Shown here: piece by piece, positions 37,356-45,050 of the stretch
Layout: each line of letters begins with the position of its first letter
Numbering within the stretch: the stretch's first letter is position 1
Origin: Prochlorococcus sp. MIT 1307
Lineage (GTDB): Bacteria > Cyanobacteriota > Cyanobacteriia > PCC-6307 > Cyanobiaceae
Assembly (NCBI RefSeq): GCF_034092395.1
Contig: NZ_CP139301.1
Span: 868,001 to 932,000 of the forward strand
Direction of reading: 5' to 3'
DNA length: 64,000 bases
Notes under the pieces: model-generated
The model's input: only the letters and a program-made list of their open reading frames with translations
Database searches by the model: none
Told to the model about the DNA's origin: nothing
Translations under genes and position numbers: made by a program

Positions 37356-37437
37356 GGGTCGGTGCCCGAGTGGTTAATGGGGGCGGACTGTAAATCCGCT
37401 GGCTCTGCCTACGTTGGTTCAAATCCAACCCGGCCCA
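37356..37437 (+). tRNA. tRNA-Tyr (anticodon GTA)
   Basis: A class II tRNA of 82 bases. The acceptor arms GGGTCGG and CCGGCCC pair (one G-T), the anticodon arm contains CTGTAAA with GTA, a long variable arm follows, and the T arm GTTGG-TTCAAAT-CCAAC is intact. CCA is not fully encoded. Confidence 0.95.
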
Positions 37438-37447
37438 CCTTCCACAC

Positions 37448-37519
37448 GCCCTTGTAGCTCAGCGGTAGAGCACTCCCTTGGTAAGGGAGAGGCCCCGGGT
37501 TCAAGTCCCGGCGAGGGCA
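37448..37519 (+). tRNA. tRNA-Thr (anticodon GGT)
   Basis: A 72-base class I tRNA with acceptor GCCCTTG/CGAGGGC, anticodon stem CTCCC/GGGAG with loop TTGGTAA, and T arm CCGGG-TTCAAGT-CCCGG. It is ten bases after tRNA-Tyr. A degraded copy in the same orientation lies at 41717-41789, so this gene marks the left border of a probable island. Confidence 0.95.
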
Positions 37520-37662
37520 TAAGCCCAAACCGCTTCCAAAAAAATGGCTCTCAGGCACCAGAGAACCACTCCTTAGTTAAATTTTAATCTCTACTTAGAT
37601 CAATTCTCCAAAACAACGGAAAAGCATACTTGGCTTTTTGTTAACAGTCTTAGGACATTTAC

Positions 37663-37827
37663 ATGAACAGCTTTCAATTCACTAATGAACAGTTTGTAGA
37701 GATTAGAGAAATCTGGAGAGACATCAATGCACAGTGCAAGATTTTTCAGGCCCAAACTGGTTGCCCAAACAGTGAAATAATAAAAATGATTGACTCAGCA
37801 AAAAGCTACTGGGAAGAAAAAAAATAA
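37663..37827 (+). CDS. hypothetical 54-residue protein
   Basis: The frame begins at an ATG and reads MNSFQFTNEQFVEIREIWRD, then INAQCKIFQAQTGCPNSEII, then a Lys-rich end. It is acidic/basic mixed, largely helical by composition, with two cysteines. No family is recognised. It is the first gene of the island, 143 bases after tRNA-Thr. The composition is convincing for a real small protein. Confidence 0.55.
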   Translation: MNSFQFTNEQFVEIREIWRDINAQCKIFQAQTGCPNSEIIKMIDSAKSYWEEKK

Positions 37828-38141
37828 GCCATACACTAACGTGATTTCTCCAAATCCAAATATCTCTAATAGATTGATTTCTTAAACTTTAAAGTTAAAG
37901 CTAAGATTGTTTCTGCATTAAAGAGTTATAGCTCTTCTATTCCTCAGATTAGGAAGTAGAAAAACTGATCCCTGGTTAAAGATACCCTAACTGAATTGCA
38001 CGGAACCTTCCATTAGTGAAGCACCCTAAAATAAAAAATAAATCCTCTCCAGCTATAATCTTAGAGGCAGGTAAAGTTTTCATTAGTCACTATTGGGCTA
38101 ACAGTCGTGCACAAACCTTCCGGTAGTTCCATAATTATCAA

Positions 38142-38453
38142 ATGAAATTAATAAAAATCGCAGCACTGGCAATCACTATTTGCTGCACAGCTTGTGTGAG
38201 TCCAAGCGGCAACCAAACAGAAGAATCCCTCAATCCAAGCACCCAGGATGAGTTCAGCTCACAATTAGAGCTCATAGAAAGTGCCTTCCAAAAGGGTAAT
38301 AGCAAAGAAGCTTGTGACCTTCATGCAAAGGTTTCAAAAAACCTAGATTTTTCTAAAGAAATCTCAAGAGGCTCTATAGAAGAGCTAAAGAGGTTTCAAT
38401 CAAAATGCATGAAAGCATTGTCAAAAGATTTCAAAGAACTACTAAAAGAATAA
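38142..38453 (+). CDS. small putative lipoprotein
   Basis: The 103-residue product starts MKLIKIAALAITICCTACVS, a lysine followed by an apolar core and a CTAC that can serve as a lipobox, with Cys18 as the likely lipidated residue. The mature part is polar, rich in Glu, Ser and Lys, and probably helical (SQLELIESAFQKGNSKEACD). No domain is recognised. A perfect nine-pair hairpin (38496-38519, GCATTCTTT/AAAGAATGC) follows the stop by 43 bases. Confidence 0.65.
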   Translation: MKLIKIAALAITICCTACVSPSGNQTEESLNPSTQDEFSSQLELIESAFQKGNSKEACDLHAKVSKNLDFSKEISRGSIEELKRFQSKCMKALSKDFKELLKE

Positions 38454-38716
38454 ATAATATTTTAGATAATATACCGACAATTTATTTCTCCCTTGGCATT
38501 CTTTCTAGCTAAAGAATGCTACTGCTTGATATAAGTTTTATTATGCCTATCCAATATTTATAAATCTCAGCAGATAAAAAGTAGTTCTTATTTGACTATA
38601 TTCAAACTCGGCCTTTAGGAAAAAGCTTTTAGGGAAGTCAAAGTGAGTTTCATAGTCTGAGATAAAAATGATTAGAGTCTTATTAATCCATGCCAGCAAA
38701 TCAATTGCTTCACGCA

Positions 38717-38866
38717 TCAACGCCAACGAATTCTTTCAGGATTTTTCTTTTCAATTCTTTTAATTATAAGAAGTAACAAGCCTATTGATACAGGGCCAGC
38801 GATAGCAACACCGATCAAGAAAAGCTTGATCTCAGTTCCTAGTACAGCCAATGAAAAACTGGTCAT
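38717..38866 (-). CDS. small membrane protein (49 residues), second gene of an ATGA-coupled pair
   Basis: The frame starts at an ATG (38864-38866) that overlaps the stop of the gene before it by four bases (ATGA). It reads MTSFSLAVLGTEIKLFLIGV, then AIAGPVSIGLLLLIIKRIEK, then KNPERIRWR. One apolar span of about 25 residues is followed by a strongly basic tail. The overlapping start and membrane pattern make it credible, though it is too small for family assignment. Confidence 0.6.
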   Translation of the reverse strand: MTSFSLAVLGTEIKLFLIGVAIAGPVSIGLLLLIIKRIEKKNPERIRWR

Positions 38867-38988
38867 TTTTGATCCTTCTTTTGATAGTTCGCATATGCAT
38901 TATGGAGTCTTCTTTGGGCAAGTCCAAAAGCAATAATAATCCATCCAGCAAAAAGGAAAAGCGTAATAATAGTAAGATGTCTATCCAT
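38863..38988 (-). CDS. small membrane protein (41 residues), first gene of an ATGA-coupled pair
   Basis: The frame reads MDRHLTIITLFLFAGWIIIA, then FGLAQRRLHNAYANYQKKDQ and a final K. A single membrane span from about residue 5 to 24 is followed by a basic, aromatic cytoplasmic-type tail. AAAAAAGAAAAG precedes the ATG. Its stop overlaps the start of the next small gene. I recognise no family; small single-span proteins in tandem suggest subunits or regulators of a membrane complex. Confidence 0.6.
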   Translation of the reverse strand: MDRHLTIITLFLFAGWIIIAFGLAQRRLHNAYANYQKKDQK

Positions 38989-39196
38989 AACTTTTCTTTT
39001 TTAAATGATCTAAAAGAATAGCCTTTCAAAGCAATTCTAATAGTAAAGCGTTTTAACTCTAATAAAGATGTCCGATTAACGTCCATGGTCTTTTAGATAG
39101 CAGGTCTCCACTTATTAGATTTTCTTTAAGTCATACATTAGAAATTCAGCAATAGGCAACCATTAAGCTGCCCTTATGATCCAGGTGAAGTGAAGG

Positions 39197-39355
39197 TCAG
39201 CTTTTCATCCATGCTCGTTCTAATACTTCTCTAGAAGAAGAAGTCGAAGGTAGAGAGGCTAGTTGCTTAAATTTCATACTAAAACGCCAAATCTTAAAGA
39301 AAGCAATTGGCAAAAAAATCACCAAAAATAAAGGTTCAACAAAAGAATCGACCAT
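39197..39355 (-). CDS. small membrane protein (52 residues)
   Basis: From the ATG at 39355 the frame reads MVDSFVEPLFLVIFLPIAFF, then KIWRFSMKFKQLASLPSTSS, then SREVLERAWMKS. It has one span near the N-terminus and a charged C-terminus. A longer frame to 39382 would start inside the tail of the sRNA terminator, so I prefer the shorter one. No family recognised. Confidence 0.5.
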   Translation of the reverse strand: MVDSFVEPLFLVIFLPIAFFKIWRFSMKFKQLASLPSTSSSREVLERAWMKS

Positions 39356-39384
39356 AAGAAAGACATGCACAAACAGACACAAGA

Positions 39385-39466
39385 AAGCCCGCCAAAGGCG
39401 GGCTTCTTTGAGATCTTCAGCAAGTGTTTCCTTGTTTCCACTGCCGGGAGGATCTCATCTCCTCAC
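39385..39466 (-). ncRNA. yfr2: Yfr2-like (cyano-1 family) small RNA
   Basis: On the minus strand the sequence from about 39466 begins GTGAGGAGATGAGATC and holds two copies of the GGAAACA motif (39433-39439 and 39425-39431) in the loop of a stem. An outer stem GAGATC/GATCTC joins 39451-39456 to 39410-39415. A perfect nine-pair terminator (39385-39405, AAGCCCGCC/GGCGGGCTT) follows with a U-rich tail. Tandem GGAAACA motifs in a loop with a 3' terminator are the hallmark of the Yfr2 family of picocyanobacteria. A TAATTAATTAT stretch just upstream could be the -10 region. The exact 5' end is not known. Confidence 0.8.
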
Positions 39467-39569
39467 ATAATTAATTATCCACTAATCCTCTGATCTTGTC
39501 AGCAAAGACTAGCCTCAAGATGAACTGGCACAGTGACAGTTCAACAAAAGCGGTTTGATTCACATCCAT

Positions 39570-39734
39570 TCAACCCGCATGACAAGAAAAAGTGGTCATC
39601 AGAAAATCATGAAAAGCAGGCACTGCTCGATCCAGTCCCCAGAAAAAGATTCCTGTTGAAAAGGTTGTAATAGCTGCCTTTTGTGCCCAATGAAGACTTT
39701 TTTGCTGAAGAGCTGATTGCAGTGCTGAATTCAT
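39570..39734 (-). CDS. hypothetical 54-residue protein
   Basis: The frame reads MNSALQSALQQKSLHWAQKA, then AITTFSTGIFFWGLDRAVPA, then FHDFLMTTFSCHAG. It has an amphipathic N-terminus and a modest apolar centre with aromatic residues. The composition is that of a real conserved small protein, but I know no family. It lies upstream of the Yfr2-like sRNA on the same strand. Confidence 0.6.
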   Translation of the reverse strand: MNSALQSALQQKSLHWAQKAAITTFSTGIFFWGLDRAVPAFHDFLMTTFSCHAG

Positions 39735-39832
39735 CTACCTGCCCCAAAGTTTTGGAAAAGATAACGGGTTTTCTCGCGAGGATGTATACCTCGCAACAAA
39801 CCTAAATGAGGGCAATATGGTTTACTTACATC

Positions 39833-40009
39833 ATGCGAACACCAAAGAAGAAGCACAACGCTGAGTTGAAATTCCATCCGAATTTTGAAGAAATCGATCA
39901 CAGACTGTCTTGTGGTTGGCACGTTGAAATTGAAGGGAGTGGTCAACGAAAGCGCTATCTCAGGTCAATAAGAGATGAGCAGCCTGCAAGAGCTGAGCAA
40001 ACTGCCTAA
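39833..40009 (+). CDS. hypothetical 58-residue basic protein
   Basis: From the ATG at 39833 it reads MRTPKKKHNAELKFHPNFEE, then IDHRLSCGWHVEIEGSGQRK, then RYLRSIRDEQPARAEQTA. It is basic and soluble, with a WHVEIEGSG turn that suggests a small beta structure. An earlier in-frame ATG at 39806 adds nine less typical residues. It is divergent from the 54-residue gene at 39570-39734. No family recognised. Confidence 0.6.
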   Translation: MRTPKKKHNAELKFHPNFEEIDHRLSCGWHVEIEGSGQRKRYLRSIRDEQPARAEQTA

Positions 40010-40178
40010 CGAGATAGGTAGTTTCACTCCAATTCCACTTTGAGTCACTAGCTCAAGCACCTCTTCAAGTAACACGACGGAGGGACGCCCTCTCACTCCA
40101 ACCAAGGGAAGGACACTTTTATTGCTTCAATGGCGCCAAGGAGCGATGAAAAATAGCTTTGCAGGTCGTCGTCTGGCT

Positions 40179-40442
40179 TTATAGCATCAGTCCTTTTGCT
40201 ACCAGAAGTCCCTTAACTAGATCGGCATTGATGGTCCGAATCATTCCTGTATCGACACAGGCAACTTGAAGCAAGCTGCTAACGCACGGATCTCTTGCGC
40301 TTCCAACCACATGGATGACACGAGCTACCCACCAGTCAGACTTTCTGGCATCAATTGCCGGGGAGCCTTCTTCAACGACAACGATGTCGCCAGATTTAGC
40401 GAGAAGGAAATCAGAAGAAGGACCAGCAGCGGCAACAGACAT
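40179..40442 (-). CDS. DUF3104 family protein
   Basis: The 87-residue protein has DFLLAKSGDIVVVEEGSPAI, DWWVARVIHVVGSARDPCVS and SLLQVACVDTGMIRTINADL. The order of a short beta-rich SH3-like region ending in ADLV is the pattern of DUF3104, a family of small picocyanobacterial proteins. Function unknown. It lies on the minus strand inside the island. Confidence 0.75.
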   Translation of the reverse strand: MSVAAAGPSSDFLLAKSGDIVVVEEGSPAIDARKSDWWVARVIHVVGSARDPCVSSLLQVACVDTGMIRTINADLVKGLLVAKGLML

Positions 40443-40537
40443 ACCTCGCGAATAAGTACACCAGTACTAGCTAGTTTTTTAAACTTGTCAACTGGCTAAC
40501 CTTTATTAGCTTCTAAGAAAAGAAAGTCTTAACCGAG

Positions 40538-40717
40538 ATGCTGGATACTCTCTTAGACCTGACATGGCGAAACCCACTTTTTATGCTGGTGGTGATAATC
40601 ACTATCTGGTTCCTTCCTGGCATTGTAGTAAGACGAATAGCTGAAAAAAGGTACGCAGCTTCGAAAAAAGAAGCTCAAGCAAAAGCGATATCAAAGCTTT
40701 ACCCAAAAAAGAATTAA
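40538..40717 (+). CDS. small membrane protein (59 residues)
   Basis: The frame starts at an ATG and reads MLDTLLDLTWRNPLFMLVVI, then ITIWFLPGIVVRRIAEKRYA, then ASKKEAQAKAISKLYPKKN. One span (residues about 14-31) precedes a long basic helix. It ends four bases before the next gene, so the two are likely one operon. No family recognised. Confidence 0.6.
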   Translation: MLDTLLDLTWRNPLFMLVVIITIWFLPGIVVRRIAEKRYAASKKEAQAKAISKLYPKKN

Positions 40718-40721
40718 GCCA

Positions 40722-40919
40722 ATGACCGTTCGAATGCTGACAACAGAAACACGTCGACGCCTAGAAGAAATTATTGAGCGCCTTGGGAAAGGGGAAACTG
40801 TAAGCCTGAAAGAACGAATCCAACTCAAAAAATACGCTATCCATATTCCCTTTGTTGCAGGCAAAGTAGCTCAAGCCATGAGAAGACGAGAATCGTTAGA
40901 TGCAGATGGCTTAATCTAA
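40722..40919 (+). CDS. hypothetical 65-residue basic protein
   Basis: It reads MTVRMLTTETRRRLEEIIER, then LGKGETVSLKERIQLKKYAI, then HIPFVAGKVAQAMRRRESLD and ends ADGLI. It is helical, basic and soluble; the first half resembles a short helix-turn-helix or coiled segment. It follows the 59-residue membrane gene by four bases. No family recognised. Confidence 0.6.
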   Translation: MTVRMLTTETRRRLEEIIERLGKGETVSLKERIQLKKYAIHIPFVAGKVAQAMRRRESLDADGLI

Positions 40920-40975
40920 TAATTCAAACGGCAAGGAGTGGATATATTGATTTTCAAAAGATTGGGTTCTTCTGA

Positions 40976-41197
40976 GTGTCACAAATCTTTTGGCCAAAAG
41001 GTTGGAAATTAAATGTCCACGCACCAGGAACAGGTGCTGCATTAATGATCTTGGCTCTTACTCAAATCCCAGTAGCAATCAAAACAGCTGCTGAAGTTGC
41101 TTGTATTGGTGAAATTTCTCATCAAATGTGGAGAGCAACTAAATCTCACAAAGGAGTAAACGTAATCGCAGTCCAAAAGTGCAACGGTAAAAACTAA
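40976..41197 (+). CDS. hypothetical 73-residue protein
   Basis: The frame starts at GTG (40976) and reads MSQIFWPKGWKLNVHAPGTG, then AALMILALTQIPVAIKTAAE, then VACIGEISHQMWRATKSHKG and a short end with one more Cys. There are two cysteines and a moderately apolar centre. It could be a secreted or membrane-associated mini-protein. No family recognised. Confidence 0.5.
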   Translation: MSQIFWPKGWKLNVHAPGTGAALMILALTQIPVAIKTAAEVACIGEISHQMWRATKSHKGVNVIAVQKCNGKN

Positions 41198-41716
41198 CCG
41201 AGCTAGTCAGGAGACTGTACCTGTAAGGCTGAGGCTTAACTCTAATAATCAAATGAACAGATCTAGCCGAATCGCATTAATGAAAATGGGTTGTTTTTTG
41301 GAATACTGTAATCTTCAAAAAATAAATATAAATCCAATTTAAATTTTAAGTTTTTTTTGCGTAGCCAACCATTTAAATCCATATCTAAACCTAACTCTTT
41401 CTGCTATTCCAAAAAATTAGTGCGATTTCCTATATCATAAATCTCTTGGTTGAACAGAATAAAATAAGCTATTATTCATTAAAATGTCCTTAATCACCAG
41501 CCTCAGTGAATCTTTTATAGATACATCCAAGCGACTGGGTTCAAGCAATAGAGGTTTACGCATTCAAAAGCCATGAAACTATTGACTCATAATCTTTTTT
41601 AAATTTTTCAAGCTATCTCAATCAATTCCTCTGATGTCGATTCATTTAATATGTATCTTTCTAGTAACCTTAATTAAATGAGCCTTATGGCAATCGAACG
41701 CACTCATCATCCAAAA
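41198..41716. other. gene-poor right part of the island
   Basis: About 520 AT-rich bases. The only frames are tiny: a 29-codon one from the ATG in AATAATCAAATGAACAG near 41253, and a 30-codon one at 41484-41576 (MSLITSLSESFIDTSKRLGS...). Neither is convincing. No clear RNA structure is seen before the tRNA copy. Confidence 0.4.
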
Positions 41717-41789
41717 GCCCTTGTAGCTCAAAGGTAGAGCACTCCCTTGACAAGGGAGAGGTCCCCCGACTCAATGTCCGGCAAGCGCA
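41717..41789 (+). pseudogene. decayed tRNA-Thr copy (anticodon loop now GAC)
   Basis: The first 45 bases match the tRNA-Thr at 37448 almost exactly (GCCCTTGTAGCTCA..., GGTAGAGCACTCCCTTG). The anticodon loop is TTGACAA, which would read as Val GAC. The 3' half has drifted: the T loop is CTCAATG, the T stem has a C-C mismatch and an A-T at the otherwise constant 53-61 pair, and the acceptor has one mismatch. I call it a remnant rather than a working tRNA-Val, because its body is that of tRNA-Thr. Confidence 0.75.
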
Positions 41790-41880: not shown

Positions 41881-42093
41881 ATGAACTACGCGCAAAAGTT
41901 AAACTTAGAGAAAGCACTGGTCTCACAAACATGGAACCAGAATCTTGCTGGAGCTGTAATTAATGCTATTGAACAAGATCAAAAAAAAGCAAAGCCCAAA
42001 CAAGGACCTTCGTTGCTTCAACTTGCGATTGAGAGAGAAAAAGGGAAGAAATTCAAATCTGGACCTGATACTTCAGAAATTGCAGAAGAATAA
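41881..42093 (+). CDS. hypothetical 70-residue protein
   Basis: It reads MNYAQKLNLEKALVSQTWNQ, then NLAGAVINAIEQDQKKAKPK and a Lys/Glu-rich end. Soluble and probably helical. Its TAA stop overlaps the ATG of the DUF2862 gene (TAATG), so the two form a pair. No family recognised. Confidence 0.65.
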   Translation: MNYAQKLNLEKALVSQTWNQNLAGAVINAIEQDQKKAKPKQGPSLLQLAIEREKGKKFKSGPDTSEIAEE

Positions 42094-42323
42094 TGGTTAA
42101 GCCTGAAACTCTTGTGAAAGGTCAGATTTTAATGATCAACCTTAACAAAGTCCGAGATAGACTTCCAAGTCATCTTATAGAAAAGATTACTCTTAATCCT
42201 TTTGGTAAATTAATTGGATACAAAATGGTCGATGGAAATAATTTTGGCTTAGTTTTGGATTTGGGAGAAGGGAATACAAGTTGGTTCTTTGAAGACGAGC
42301 TTGCGGAGTCTCACGAGACATAA
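42093..42323 (+). CDS. DUF2862 family protein
   Basis: The 76-residue protein reads MVKPETLVKGQILMINLNKV, then RDRLPSHLIEKITLNPFGKL, then IGYKMVDGNNFGLVLDLGEG and NTSWFFEDEL. This matches DUF2862, a small beta-barrel-like family found in cyanobacteria. Function unknown. Its start overlaps the stop of the 70-residue gene. There is no clear terminator; about 290 AT-rich bases follow without a gene. Confidence 0.8.
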   Translation: MVKPETLVKGQILMINLNKVRDRLPSHLIEKITLNPFGKLIGYKMVDGNNFGLVLDLGEGNTSWFFEDELAESHET

Positions 42324-43589: not shown

Positions 43590-45050
43590 TTATATAGCTT
43601 CCTTAAATAACACAAACGACTGTGGGGCAAGCCTCTTTCCTTGACCGTCAACTTCTCCTTCTAAAAAAAAATATTCCGAACCAGAGGCTTGTATAGGCAT
43701 CCAAGAGCTGCGACTTCGGTTTACAAAAATCTCAATTGAGCTTTTGACTTCAGACGCATCGAGTTCTTTTTGCAGAAAAACAGCAAGCAATCCATCCTCT
43801 CCAACAGTTTTCCATTCCAACTCTCCATTAAAAACCTCAAAAATATTCTTTCTAAGAGCAACCAAAGAGAGAATAAAAGATCTTAAATCTACATTCCAAG
43901 ATTCATACCAAGGGAAGCACTCTCTACAAGCAGGCTCTTCCCCTCCTGACAAGCCAACCTCCGTACCATAGTAAATACAAGGCACTCCTGGTTGAAGGAA
44001 AAGAAGAAAAAGAGCTATCTTTAATGCAGAGATGTCGCCTTTCAGAGTATTCAATGCTCGAGGCACATCATGACTATCAAGCAAATTCAACTGACTATTA
44101 TTTACTTCATTGGAATACCAGCCTAAGGTAGTCTGAAGAATATCAATAAAAGCGGCACCCGAAATTAATTTAAGTGGATAGGAAGGGTTTTTATAACTTG
44201 TTCTAAGCTTATTTTTTGCAGACCAACATACACTACTCCAACCAATTCGATAATTCATTACTCCATCAAAATGATCCCCTTTTAACCACTTTCGTGCATC
44301 TCCCCAAATCTCTCCGACGATCCAGGCGTCAGGGTTTATTGCTTTCACTTTATTTCGAAAGTCAACCCAAAACTCTATAGGAACTTCATCAGGAACATCT
44401 AGCCGCCACCCATCTATTCCTCTTTCAATCCAGTAAACAGCAACTGAAATTAAATATTCGCGAACAGGAAAATGTTTATGGTTAAACTTTGGCAAAGCAG
44501 GGTCATTCCACCAACAGCTATAGCCGCAATCCTGACCAGGTTGTGGATAAGGAAGAAGTGGCCAATTGTGCACATGAAACCAATCTCTATATGGAGATGT
44601 GTATCCATTTTCTAATAAGTGGTGAAAGGCCCAAAAACCTCTCCCGCAATGGTTAAAAACCCCATCAAGAATAATTCGCATACCCCTGCTATGCAGAGCA
44701 GAGATCAATGCCTCTAAAGCCAGTCCCCCCCCCAGAAGAGGGTCCACCTGAAAATAATCAAACGTATGGTAACGGTGATTAGCTGCTGAACTAAATACAG
44801 GATTTAGATATAAGCAATTAATTCCAAGTTGCTGAAGGTAATCAAGAGCATCTATCACTCCATACAAATCACCTCCATAGAATCCCTCATGAGATGGAAC
44901 ACCCCCCCAAGCTTGCAGATCCCAACCTTGATCCACTCCAACATGGCCACTTCGACGGAAACGATCAGGAAAAATCTGGTAAGCAATCGCATCTGAGACC
45001 CAACCTGGAGGCTTGCAAAACAAATTCTTATGCTGCATTTCCCTTTGCAT
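43590..45050 (-). CDS. GH13 alpha-amylase family enzyme (neopullulanase/cyclomaltodextrinase-like)
   Basis: The 486-residue protein has an (alpha/beta)8 barrel with the GH13 regions: DGVFNHCGRGFW (I), DGWRLDVPDEV with the nucleophile Asp (II), VGEIWGDARKW with the acid Glu (III) and LLDSHDVPRAL with the third Asp (IV). The start VSDAIAYQIFPDRFRRSGHV is typical of neopullulanase-like enzymes that act on maltodextrins. There is no signal peptide, so it should work on internal glycogen fragments. Its start is 40 bases from the divergent glpK start, so the promoters share that gap. Confidence 0.88.
   Translation of the reverse strand: MQREMQHKNLFCKPPGWVSDAIAYQIFPDRFRRSGHVGVDQGWDLQAWGGVPSHEGFYGGDLYGVIDALDYLQQLGINCLYLNPVFSSAANHRYHTFDYFQVDPLLGGGLALEALISALHSRGMRIILDGVFNHCGRGFWAFHHLLENGYTSPYRDWFHVHNWPLLPYPQPGQDCGYSCWWNDPALPKFNHKHFPVREYLISVAVYWIERGIDGWRLDVPDEVPIEFWVDFRNKVKAINPDAWIVGEIWGDARKWLKGDHFDGVMNYRIGWSSVCWSAKNKLRTSYKNPSYPLKLISGAAFIDILQTTLGWYSNEVNNSQLNLLDSHDVPRALNTLKGDISALKIALFLLFLQPGVPCIYYGTEVGLSGGEEPACRECFPWYESWNVDLRSFILSLVALRKNIFEVFNGELEWKTVGEDGLLAVFLQKELDASEVKSSIEIFVNRSRSSWMPIQASGSEYFFLEGEVDGQGKRLAPQSFVLFKEAI

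What the first reader, a model, noticed from the sequence alone, without database searches (positions are those of the whole stretch)
37448..41789. 4.2-kb block of tiny genes bounded by tRNA-Thr and a decayed copy of it
The intact tRNA-Thr at 37448 and the copy at 41717 share nearly all of their first 45 bases in the same orientation. Between them are about ten mini-genes, a lipoprotein, a DUF3104 gene and a Yfr2-like sRNA, with no housekeeping gene. Direct tRNA repeats around accessory DNA are the footprint of an integrated element. Prochlorococcus has tRNA-targeting elements (tycheposons), but this one lacks an integrase and would be an eroded or non-autonomous relative. One point does not fit a simple attachment-site model: the 5' half, not the 3' half, of the tRNA is best preserved.
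Basis: partly seen in the sequence, partly recalled or inferred. Interest (0 to 1): 0.75.

Follow-up and report, generated by a model that had tools for sequence, protein, structure and literature searches.

The report
Orphaned tRNA scar of mobile element
The broken second threonine-tRNA gene is most likely the cell's original one, pushed aside when a mobile DNA element inserted behind the neighbouring tyrosine-tRNA gene and supplied its own replacement threonine-tRNA; related Prochlorococcus still carry such an element, integrase intact, at this very spot.

Summary
Confirmed: intact tRNA-Tyr/tRNA-Thr(GGT) at 37356-37519 and a full-length but broken Thr copy at 41717-41789 (82% identical), with small accessory genes between. 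Relatives show what made it. The interval between this pair and an alpha-amylase gene is an integration hotspot. A tyrosine-recombinase family sits about 140 bp behind tRNA-Thr in 41 of 43 integrase loci from named genomes, and in one genome of the window's own genus. Integrases are 91-96% identical between hosts whose core proteins are 66-68% identical. At the far end of complete elements lies the end of tRNA-Tyr and a whole displaced tRNA-Thr still followed by the empty-site flank; five empty sites confirm this. So the copy is best read not as a 3' att fragment but as the host's own tRNA-Thr, displaced by an element that inserts at or near the tRNA-Tyr 3' end and brings a complete tRNA-Thr. 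Insertions stack. In the window the integrase is gone; a left-end flank and the orphan survive. The mini-genes are old and mostly shared in order within the genus, so this is an eroded stratum, not a live element; that they were its cargo is only inferred. Kind: tRNA-targeting, tycheposon-like element; new variant.

The parts
37356..37439 (+). tRNA-Tyr(GTA); its 3' end is the proposed attachment site
   Evidence: ARAGORN; many displaced copies in relatives begin with its last ~15 nt
37448..37519 (+). tRNA-Thr(GGT), intact; proposed element-borne replacement copy
   Evidence: its 3' flank is element-type
37522..37564 (+). relic of the element's left-end flank (hairpin region CTCAGGCACCAGAG)
   Evidence: nhmmer model from 8 genomes with intact integrase: E 8.8e-6 in the 64-kb window
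37663..37827 (+). small ORF (54 aa); no match in the fetched same-genus loci, of which only G004's covers the whole interval
38142..38453 (+). lipoprotein-like ORF (103 aa); no match in the fetched same-genus loci, of which only G004's covers the whole interval
   Evidence: no Pfam or NCBIfam family
38717..38988 (-). two small ORFs (49 and 41 aa), found in other genomes of the genus
39197..39382 (-). small ORF (61 aa), found in other genomes of the genus
39406..39472 (-). Cyano-1 sRNA, also in the same island of G004 and G002
   Evidence: Rfam RF01701 57.2 bits
39570..40009 (.). small ORFs 39570-39734 (-) and 39806-40009 (+), found in G004 and G002
40179..40442 (-). DUF3104 protein
   Evidence: PF11302 E 1.4e-23
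40538..41197 (+). small ORFs 40538-40717, 40722-40919, 40976-41197; relatives of the second lie at other loci in the other genera compared
41717..41789 (+). displaced, decayed tRNA-Thr (orphan)
41881..42323 (+). older stratum beyond the orphan: 70-aa ORF and PF11061 gene
43590..45050 (-). alpha-amylase-family gene: far boundary of the hotspot; directly behind tRNA-Thr in empty or deleted sites
   Evidence: PF00128

Best explanation
The locus is an eroded insertion of a tyrosine-recombinase element family specific to the tRNA-Tyr/tRNA-Thr pair of Prochlorococcus. The integrase recombines at or next to the 3' end of tRNA-Tyr, the first of two tRNA genes 8 bp apart. A plain insertion there would cut tRNA-Thr off from the gene before it, so the element's left end carries the missing Tyr 3' end plus a complete tRNA-Thr with its 3' hairpin; both tRNAs are whole after insertion. 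The host's original tRNA-Thr lands on the far side, orphaned, and decays. Later elements insert at the same point and push older tRNA-Thr copies and older elements downstream, so fossils stack. In the window the integrase is lost; a left-end flank relic and one orphan remain. Shown in relatives: site, integrase, displaced Thr with the native flank, stacking, horizontal movement. Inferred: that the window's copy arose this way; the exact crossover; co-transcription of the two tRNAs; and (about even odds) that the mini-genes were this element's cargo.
For: Integrase hits in 18 of 201 family genomes (19 loci); all 19 loci lie directly behind tRNA-Tyr-Thr; so do 41 of 43 named-genome loci, with about 128-144 bp from Thr end to start codon in the 38 where the start was matched. 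Residues R197/R198, H282, R285, H308 and Y317 (catalytic set, recalled) are invariant in 10 of 10 aligned. G006, same genus as the window, has an intact one. Empty versus occupied sites: 5 genomes without an integrase in the fetched stretch have Tyr-Thr followed by a native flank; in the occupied genome that flank follows the displaced Thr, and its two flanks joined match the 5 empties at 89-91% over 417-434 nt. Of 13 displaced copies with right ends compared, 11 begin with about the last 15 nt of tRNA-Tyr and 2 (L136, L173) with about the last 8; the sequence before is conserved within the LL group and within the HLII group. The LL-type junction pattern is in 8 of 400 family genomes (it does not cover the HLII type or decayed ones). 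Stacks: L137 and L169 have a second integrase relic behind the displaced Thr; L173 and G027 have two displaced copies. Integrase 91-96% identical in hosts 66-68% identical, and 87-90% in hosts 64-73%. Sister hosts G061/G102 differ in Thr T-stem type (CCGG/CCGA) together with the left flank; in G027 the two inner copies are CCGA and the outermost fragment beside the amylase is CCGG. The window's Thr has an element-type 3' flank: a model from 8 intact-integrase genomes matches 27 of 40 flanks (those 8 and 19 of the other 32), not 13, among them three sites with the amylase directly behind (G011, G019, G035).
Against: No integrase relic in the window block (profile best E 0.33). The window orphan's upstream flank resembles attR only weakly (21 of 31 bases; 113 of 2000 random places and 43 of 500 shuffles score as well) and its downstream flank does not match beyond chance (262 of 2000). 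Three same-genus genomes whose sequence across this interval is held lack the orphan, so it was lost in them or arose in the window lineage after the mini-genes. In L138 and L140 the displaced copy is the whole Tyr-Thr pair; the orphans of G000, G020, G034, L160 and L169 have no recognisable Tyr part. Spacers of the two copies are usually identical within a genome, which needs homogenisation or within-lineage spread. In G005 the displaced copy is CCGA and the main one CCGG, the reverse of a simple one-step replacement in that genus. The type-integrase association is Fisher p 0.018, not corrected for phylogeny, and scores G005, G008 and G020 as integrase-free although they hold displaced copies. 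One of 43 integrase loci, a fragment (L176), has no tRNA pair in the 2.2 kb before it.
Confidence: 0.77

Rival explanations
1. Ordinary attachment inside tRNA-Thr: the integrase crosses over in tRNA-Thr itself, the element carries the Thr 3' part, and the Tyr sequence at the far end is a passenger.
For: The nearest tRNA to the integrase is Thr; in G027 a 22-nt Thr 3' end beside the amylase gene looks like a classical attR. Spacers do not always track the integrase: G070 and G107 share CCTCCACAA but G241 (90% integrase identity to G107) does not. Where main and displaced copies are identical, as in the HLII empty-site comparison, the crossover cannot be placed.
Against: Displaced copies are whole Thr genes that start in tRNA-Tyr, with element sequence ending there; the Thr T-stem type switches with the element's left flank.
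Confidence: 0.15
2. Chance segmental duplication of the tRNA next to unrelated small genes, no mobile element involved in this genome.
For: No integrase in the window; flanks of the orphan nearly unrecognisable.
Against: Second Thr copies recur in at least 9 of 37 family genomes (list truncated; 4 of the 9, G005, G008, G020 and G034, on a contig apart from the main pair) and, in the same interval, in 12 of 43 integrase loci; the window's intact Thr has the element-type flank.
Confidence: 0.06
3. The copy is a working tRNA or tRNA-like RNA with a new anticodon (GAC, valine).
For: 43.5 bits to Rfam tRNA; anticodon stem intact.
Against: T arm broken, not called by ARAGORN; absent from the same interval in three same-genus genomes.
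Confidence: 0.02

Closest known systems
Tycheposons of Prochlorococcus (Hackl et al. 2023, not held here)
   Same: Prochlorococcus islands bordered by a tRNA, a tyrosine recombinase, cargo genes, 4-200 kb (as described in PMC10872708, passages seen)
   Different: Hallmark-gene content and integrase clade could not be compared; restoration of a second, complete tRNA gene is not described in the passages I saw; the window's copy has no integrase
tRNA/tmRNA genomic islands as catalogued in Islander (PMC4383910, passages seen)
   Same: Tyrosine integrase, target gene restored, displaced sequence marks the far end, tandem arrays
   Different: [quoted passage not shown] here the displaced marker includes a whole second tRNA gene
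tRNA-Phe/tRNA-Cys integrase islands of picocyanobacteria (PMC10187409, passages seen)
   Same: Picocyanobacterial integrase tied to specific tRNAs, variable islands
   Different: Described as a separate subgroup, upstream of tRNA-Phe or tRNA-Cys; this family lies directly downstream of tRNA-Thr. The sequences were not compared here
tRNA-Met/ansA island of MIT9313 (PMC2784084, passages seen)
   Same: Several pseudo-tRNA copies accumulated at one hypervariable site
   Different: Different tRNA; linked there to a siphovirus and transposases

Membership tests
tRNA-integrating tyrosine-recombinase genomic island | Integrase at the site | tested here: not met
   None in the window block; met in relatives at the same site, including G006 of the same genus
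tRNA-integrating tyrosine-recombinase genomic island | Direct tRNA-derived repeat at both ends | tested here: met
   Window; relatives:
tRNA-integrating tyrosine-recombinase genomic island | Empty site exists in relatives and matches joined flanks | tested here: met
   Met in relatives: HLII genus, 5 empty genomes against occupied L154. For the window itself no empty close relative was seen
tRNA-integrating tyrosine-recombinase genomic island | Excision and circular form | not testable with these tools
   Needs cells or reads; no close relative among viral contigs
Tycheposon | tRNA at the border, one of seven published kinds | tested here: inconclusive
   A tRNA border is there; which seven tRNAs are meant I could not read
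Tycheposon | Tyrosine recombinase of the tycheposon clade | tested here: inconclusive
   Absent from the window; the relatives' integrase matches PF00589 and phrog_1, and HP1 integrase in the PDB; no tycheposon reference sequences at hand
Tycheposon | Other hallmark genes (recalled, not read) | not tested
   Cell 2023 paper not held

The most novel reading that the evidence does not exclude
A family of integrative elements targets the first gene of a two-tRNA unit and carries a complete copy of the second tRNA gene as part of its attachment region, so each insertion replaces a host tRNA gene and leaves the old one as a fossil marker; a tRNA-Thr(GGT) gene, of which no second good copy was found in the window's genome, would then move horizontally among Prochlorococcus lineages.
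Probability: 0.6. Interest if true: 0.72.

Novelty: new variant of a known kind. Interest (0 to 1): 0.6.

Why it matters
At least one standard island finder discards hits to whole tRNA genes, so elements of this kind may be missed or wrongly bounded. Orphan tRNA-Thr copies give a layered record of insertions at one site in a very abundant ocean phototroph. It also suggests that a translation gene can be swapped by a mobile element, which can be tested by sequencing attP and comparing tRNA-Thr with host phylogenies.

Tried and rejected
Considered and dropped: a classical Thr 3'-end attachment site as the main reading (whole Thr genes are displaced, and many start in tRNA-Tyr); a functional new-anticodon tRNA (T arm broken, not conserved); a recent mobile block (mini-genes shared in order within the genus). 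A profile search for an integrase relic in the window found nothing. A test whether the orphan's flanks still resemble element ends gave a weak upstream signal and none downstream. IMG/VR held no close integrase relative (26 loci, best segments 21-58% identical, partial). Two literature searches aimed at whole-tRNA displacement returned no papers; a third returned 41, of which I saw the listing of 15, general island papers by title. The tycheposon paper and the 2002 integration-site paper are not held, so absence from print is not claimed.
Full report
Observation. The window holds tRNA-Tyr (37356-37439) and tRNA-Thr(GGT) (37448-37519), 8 bp apart, and a full-length, broken Thr copy at 41717-41789 in the same orientation (Rfam 43.5 bits; 82% over 73 nt, E 7.7e-14 in the whole genome). 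41 of the first 45 bases agree; the T arm is scrambled and the anticodon position reads GAC. The fold keeps the anticodon stem and loses the normal T arm. Between them lie small ORFs, DUF3104, a Cyano-1 RNA and a lipoprotein-like ORF. The block is 38.5% GC against 43-44% in the flanks.

The site in relatives. All 60 genomes (the window's own included) have some tRNA match; the best 30 matches, main Tyr-Thr pairs, were taken as loci. In most of the Prochlorococcus-family loci that reach far enough the pair lies between aroQ-miaE-cobI and an alpha-amylase gene. In five the amylase follows the pair within about 200 bp (L044, L049, L051, L053, L062), although L049 and L051 keep a left-end relic and so look like deletions rather than untouched sites. 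Second Thr copies appear in 9 of the 37 family genomes (G000, G005, G008, G017, G020, G022, G023, G027, G034; the listing was truncated, so a lower bound; in G005, G008, G020 and G034 the copy is on another contig than the main pair).

The integrase. A PF00589 search in 22 genomes found strong matches right behind the pair in G006 (same genus as the window) and G022; three further strong matches (G026, G034, G035) lie on other contigs than the pair and were not followed. The window's genome has two PF00589 matches, both below the cut-off and outside the window. With the G022 protein, 18 of 201 family genomes matched at E<=1e-20; all 19 hit loci lie behind Tyr-Thr; 9 of the 18 genomes have an unbroken near-full-length gene, the other 9 truncated, split or stop-bearing ones; the window's genome has none. 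A scan of 84,980 species genomes with alignment A1 gave 43 loci, all titled Prochlorococcus or uncultured Synechococcaceae; 41 have the pair just upstream, one (L149) is cut by the contig end 94 bp before the gene, one (L176) is a fragment with no pair in the 2.2 kb before it. The distance from Thr to the integrase start codon is about 128-144 bp in the 38 loci where the start was matched. The residues I take as catalytic are invariant in the ten aligned. The one PDB match by sequence is HP1 integrase (E 7e-6).

Anatomy of complete elements. In G022, G087 and G241 the order is Tyr-Thr, left flank with AGTGGAC-type repeats, integrase, cargo, right end, last ~15 nt of tRNA-Tyr, spacer, whole Thr. 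In HLII Prochlorococcus, five genomes without an integrase in the fetched stretch have Tyr-Thr directly followed by a native flank; in occupied L154 the Thr next to tRNA-Tyr has the element's flank and the displaced Thr the native one; the joined flanks of L154 align with the five empty sites at 89-91% over 417-434 nt. This shows that what is displaced is the resident Thr context. Of 13 displaced copies compared, 11 start with about 15 nt of tRNA-Tyr and two with about 8; the sequence before is alike within the LL group and within the HLII group, not between them. Cargo varies: a PD-(D/E)XK nuclease and a SIMPL protein (G241), a TPR protein (G087), a glucosyl-3-phosphoglycerate synthase cluster (G022). 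The LL junction pattern occurs in 8 of 400 family genomes, so intact LL junctions are uncommon; the pattern does not cover HLII or decayed ones.

Where the crossover lies. In L136 and L173 the bases left of GGCCCA/GGTCCA at the far end are element-specific, so the crossover lies at or to the right of the last 8 nt of tRNA-Tyr. The Thr T-stem type changes together with the element's left flank between sister hosts G061 and G102, and in G027 the inner copies (CCGA) differ from the outermost fragment beside the amylase (CCGG), so it lies left of the T stem. Within one clade of the tree (31 rows; six rows of the G036/G011 group and four duplicates left out, 21 kept) CCGA with integrase or relic against CCGG with it is 6 to 2, without it 2 to 11 (Fisher p 0.018; not phylogeny-corrected; G005, G008 and G020 count as without although they hold displaced copies). 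The spacer CCTCCACAA is seen only in G070 (also as L137) and G107 among the loci; their integrases are 87% identical in hosts 64% identical, but G241 breaks the pattern. The Tyr end or spacer is the best reading, not proven.

Mobility and stacking. Integrases of G022, G087 and G066 are 91-96% identical while their aroQ+miaE proteins are 66-68% identical; G107, G070 and G241: 87-90% against 64-73%. L137 and L169 have a second, broken integrase behind the displaced Thr; L173 and G027 hold two displaced Thr copies. L166 shows erosion: the front half of the integrase runs straight into a displaced Tyr-end/Thr copy. L138 and L140 have a whole Tyr-Thr pair at the far end, which the simple model does not explain.

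Back to the window. The 3' flank of its intact Thr matches a left-end model built only from eight genomes with intact integrases (37522-37564, E 8.8e-6 in the window). Of 40 flanks tested, 27 match (the 8 used for the model and 19 of the other 32; weakest G005 at E 0.035) and 13 do not (G010, G011, G012, G013, G016, G018, G019, G024, G030, G031, G032, G035, G036); HLII flanks with integrase, which differ, were not in the set. No integrase relic was found. The orphan's upstream flank is only weakly attR-like (113 of 2000 random places as good) and its downstream flank is not recognisable. Within the genus, G004, G002 and G001 carry many of the mini-genes in the same order without the orphan; in G004 identities are 53-88% against 70-80% for four core genes. 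G005 has a displaced Thr, with right end, upstream of its mini-genes, and one of them (38717) in another order. The two ORFs nearest the tRNA (37663, 38142) were not found in the fetched same-genus loci, but only G004's locus spans the whole interval. This fits accretion at the tRNA end: newest and most variable material next to the tRNA, oldest next to the amylase gene. One mini-gene (40722) has relatives in 85 of 201 family genomes; in the genomes outside the genus whose tRNA-pair or integrase position I had (such as G008, G013, G017, G023, G026, G034, G035, G087, G107) it lies elsewhere, and in G001 and G005 the match is on another contig too.

Conclusion. The footprint is real and comes, on the balance of evidence, from a mobile-element family that still exists. 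Uncertain are the exact crossover, the co-transcription of the pair, and whether the mini-genes came with the element whose insertion displaced this particular Thr.

Literature. Seen as passages only: PMC10872708, PMC10187409, PMC4383910, PMC9897764, PMC2784084, PMC11389934 and PMC12416821. The defining tycheposon paper could not be read; what I know of it is recalled or second-hand.

Noticed in passing
L046:5328-10221 (G022): Between the tRNA pair and the displaced Thr lies a kinase, mannosyl-3-phosphoglycerate phosphatase, sucrose phosphorylase-like and glucosyl-3-phosphoglycerate synthase cluster: possible compatible-solute cargo.
   Followed up: partly
L138:16691 and L140:13420: The far-end copy is a whole tRNA-Tyr plus tRNA-Thr pair, so some elements seem to carry or displace both genes.
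   Followed up: no
Thr 3' flank in G010, G114, L138, L140 and the displaced copies of G034 and G241: The end of tRNA-Thr and the next bases read CCGACGA-GGGCA-TCGTCGG, a possible hairpin overlapping the tRNA 3' end (by eye).
   Followed up: no
element left flanks and stretches before the displaced copies: AGTGGAC-type repeats near both ends, possible integrase arm-binding sites.
   Followed up: no
G000 C1:863767, 910093, 1877279: Three PF11061-gene relatives in this one genome.
   Followed up: no
L117:8691-9386: PD-(D/E)XK nuclease with weak Cas4-like similarity carried by the G241 element.
   Followed up: no
L070, L071, L072 (G034:C41, G035:C1, G026:C3): Strong PF00589 integrases in genomes of this survey that do not lie at the tRNA-Tyr/Thr pair.
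   Followed up: no
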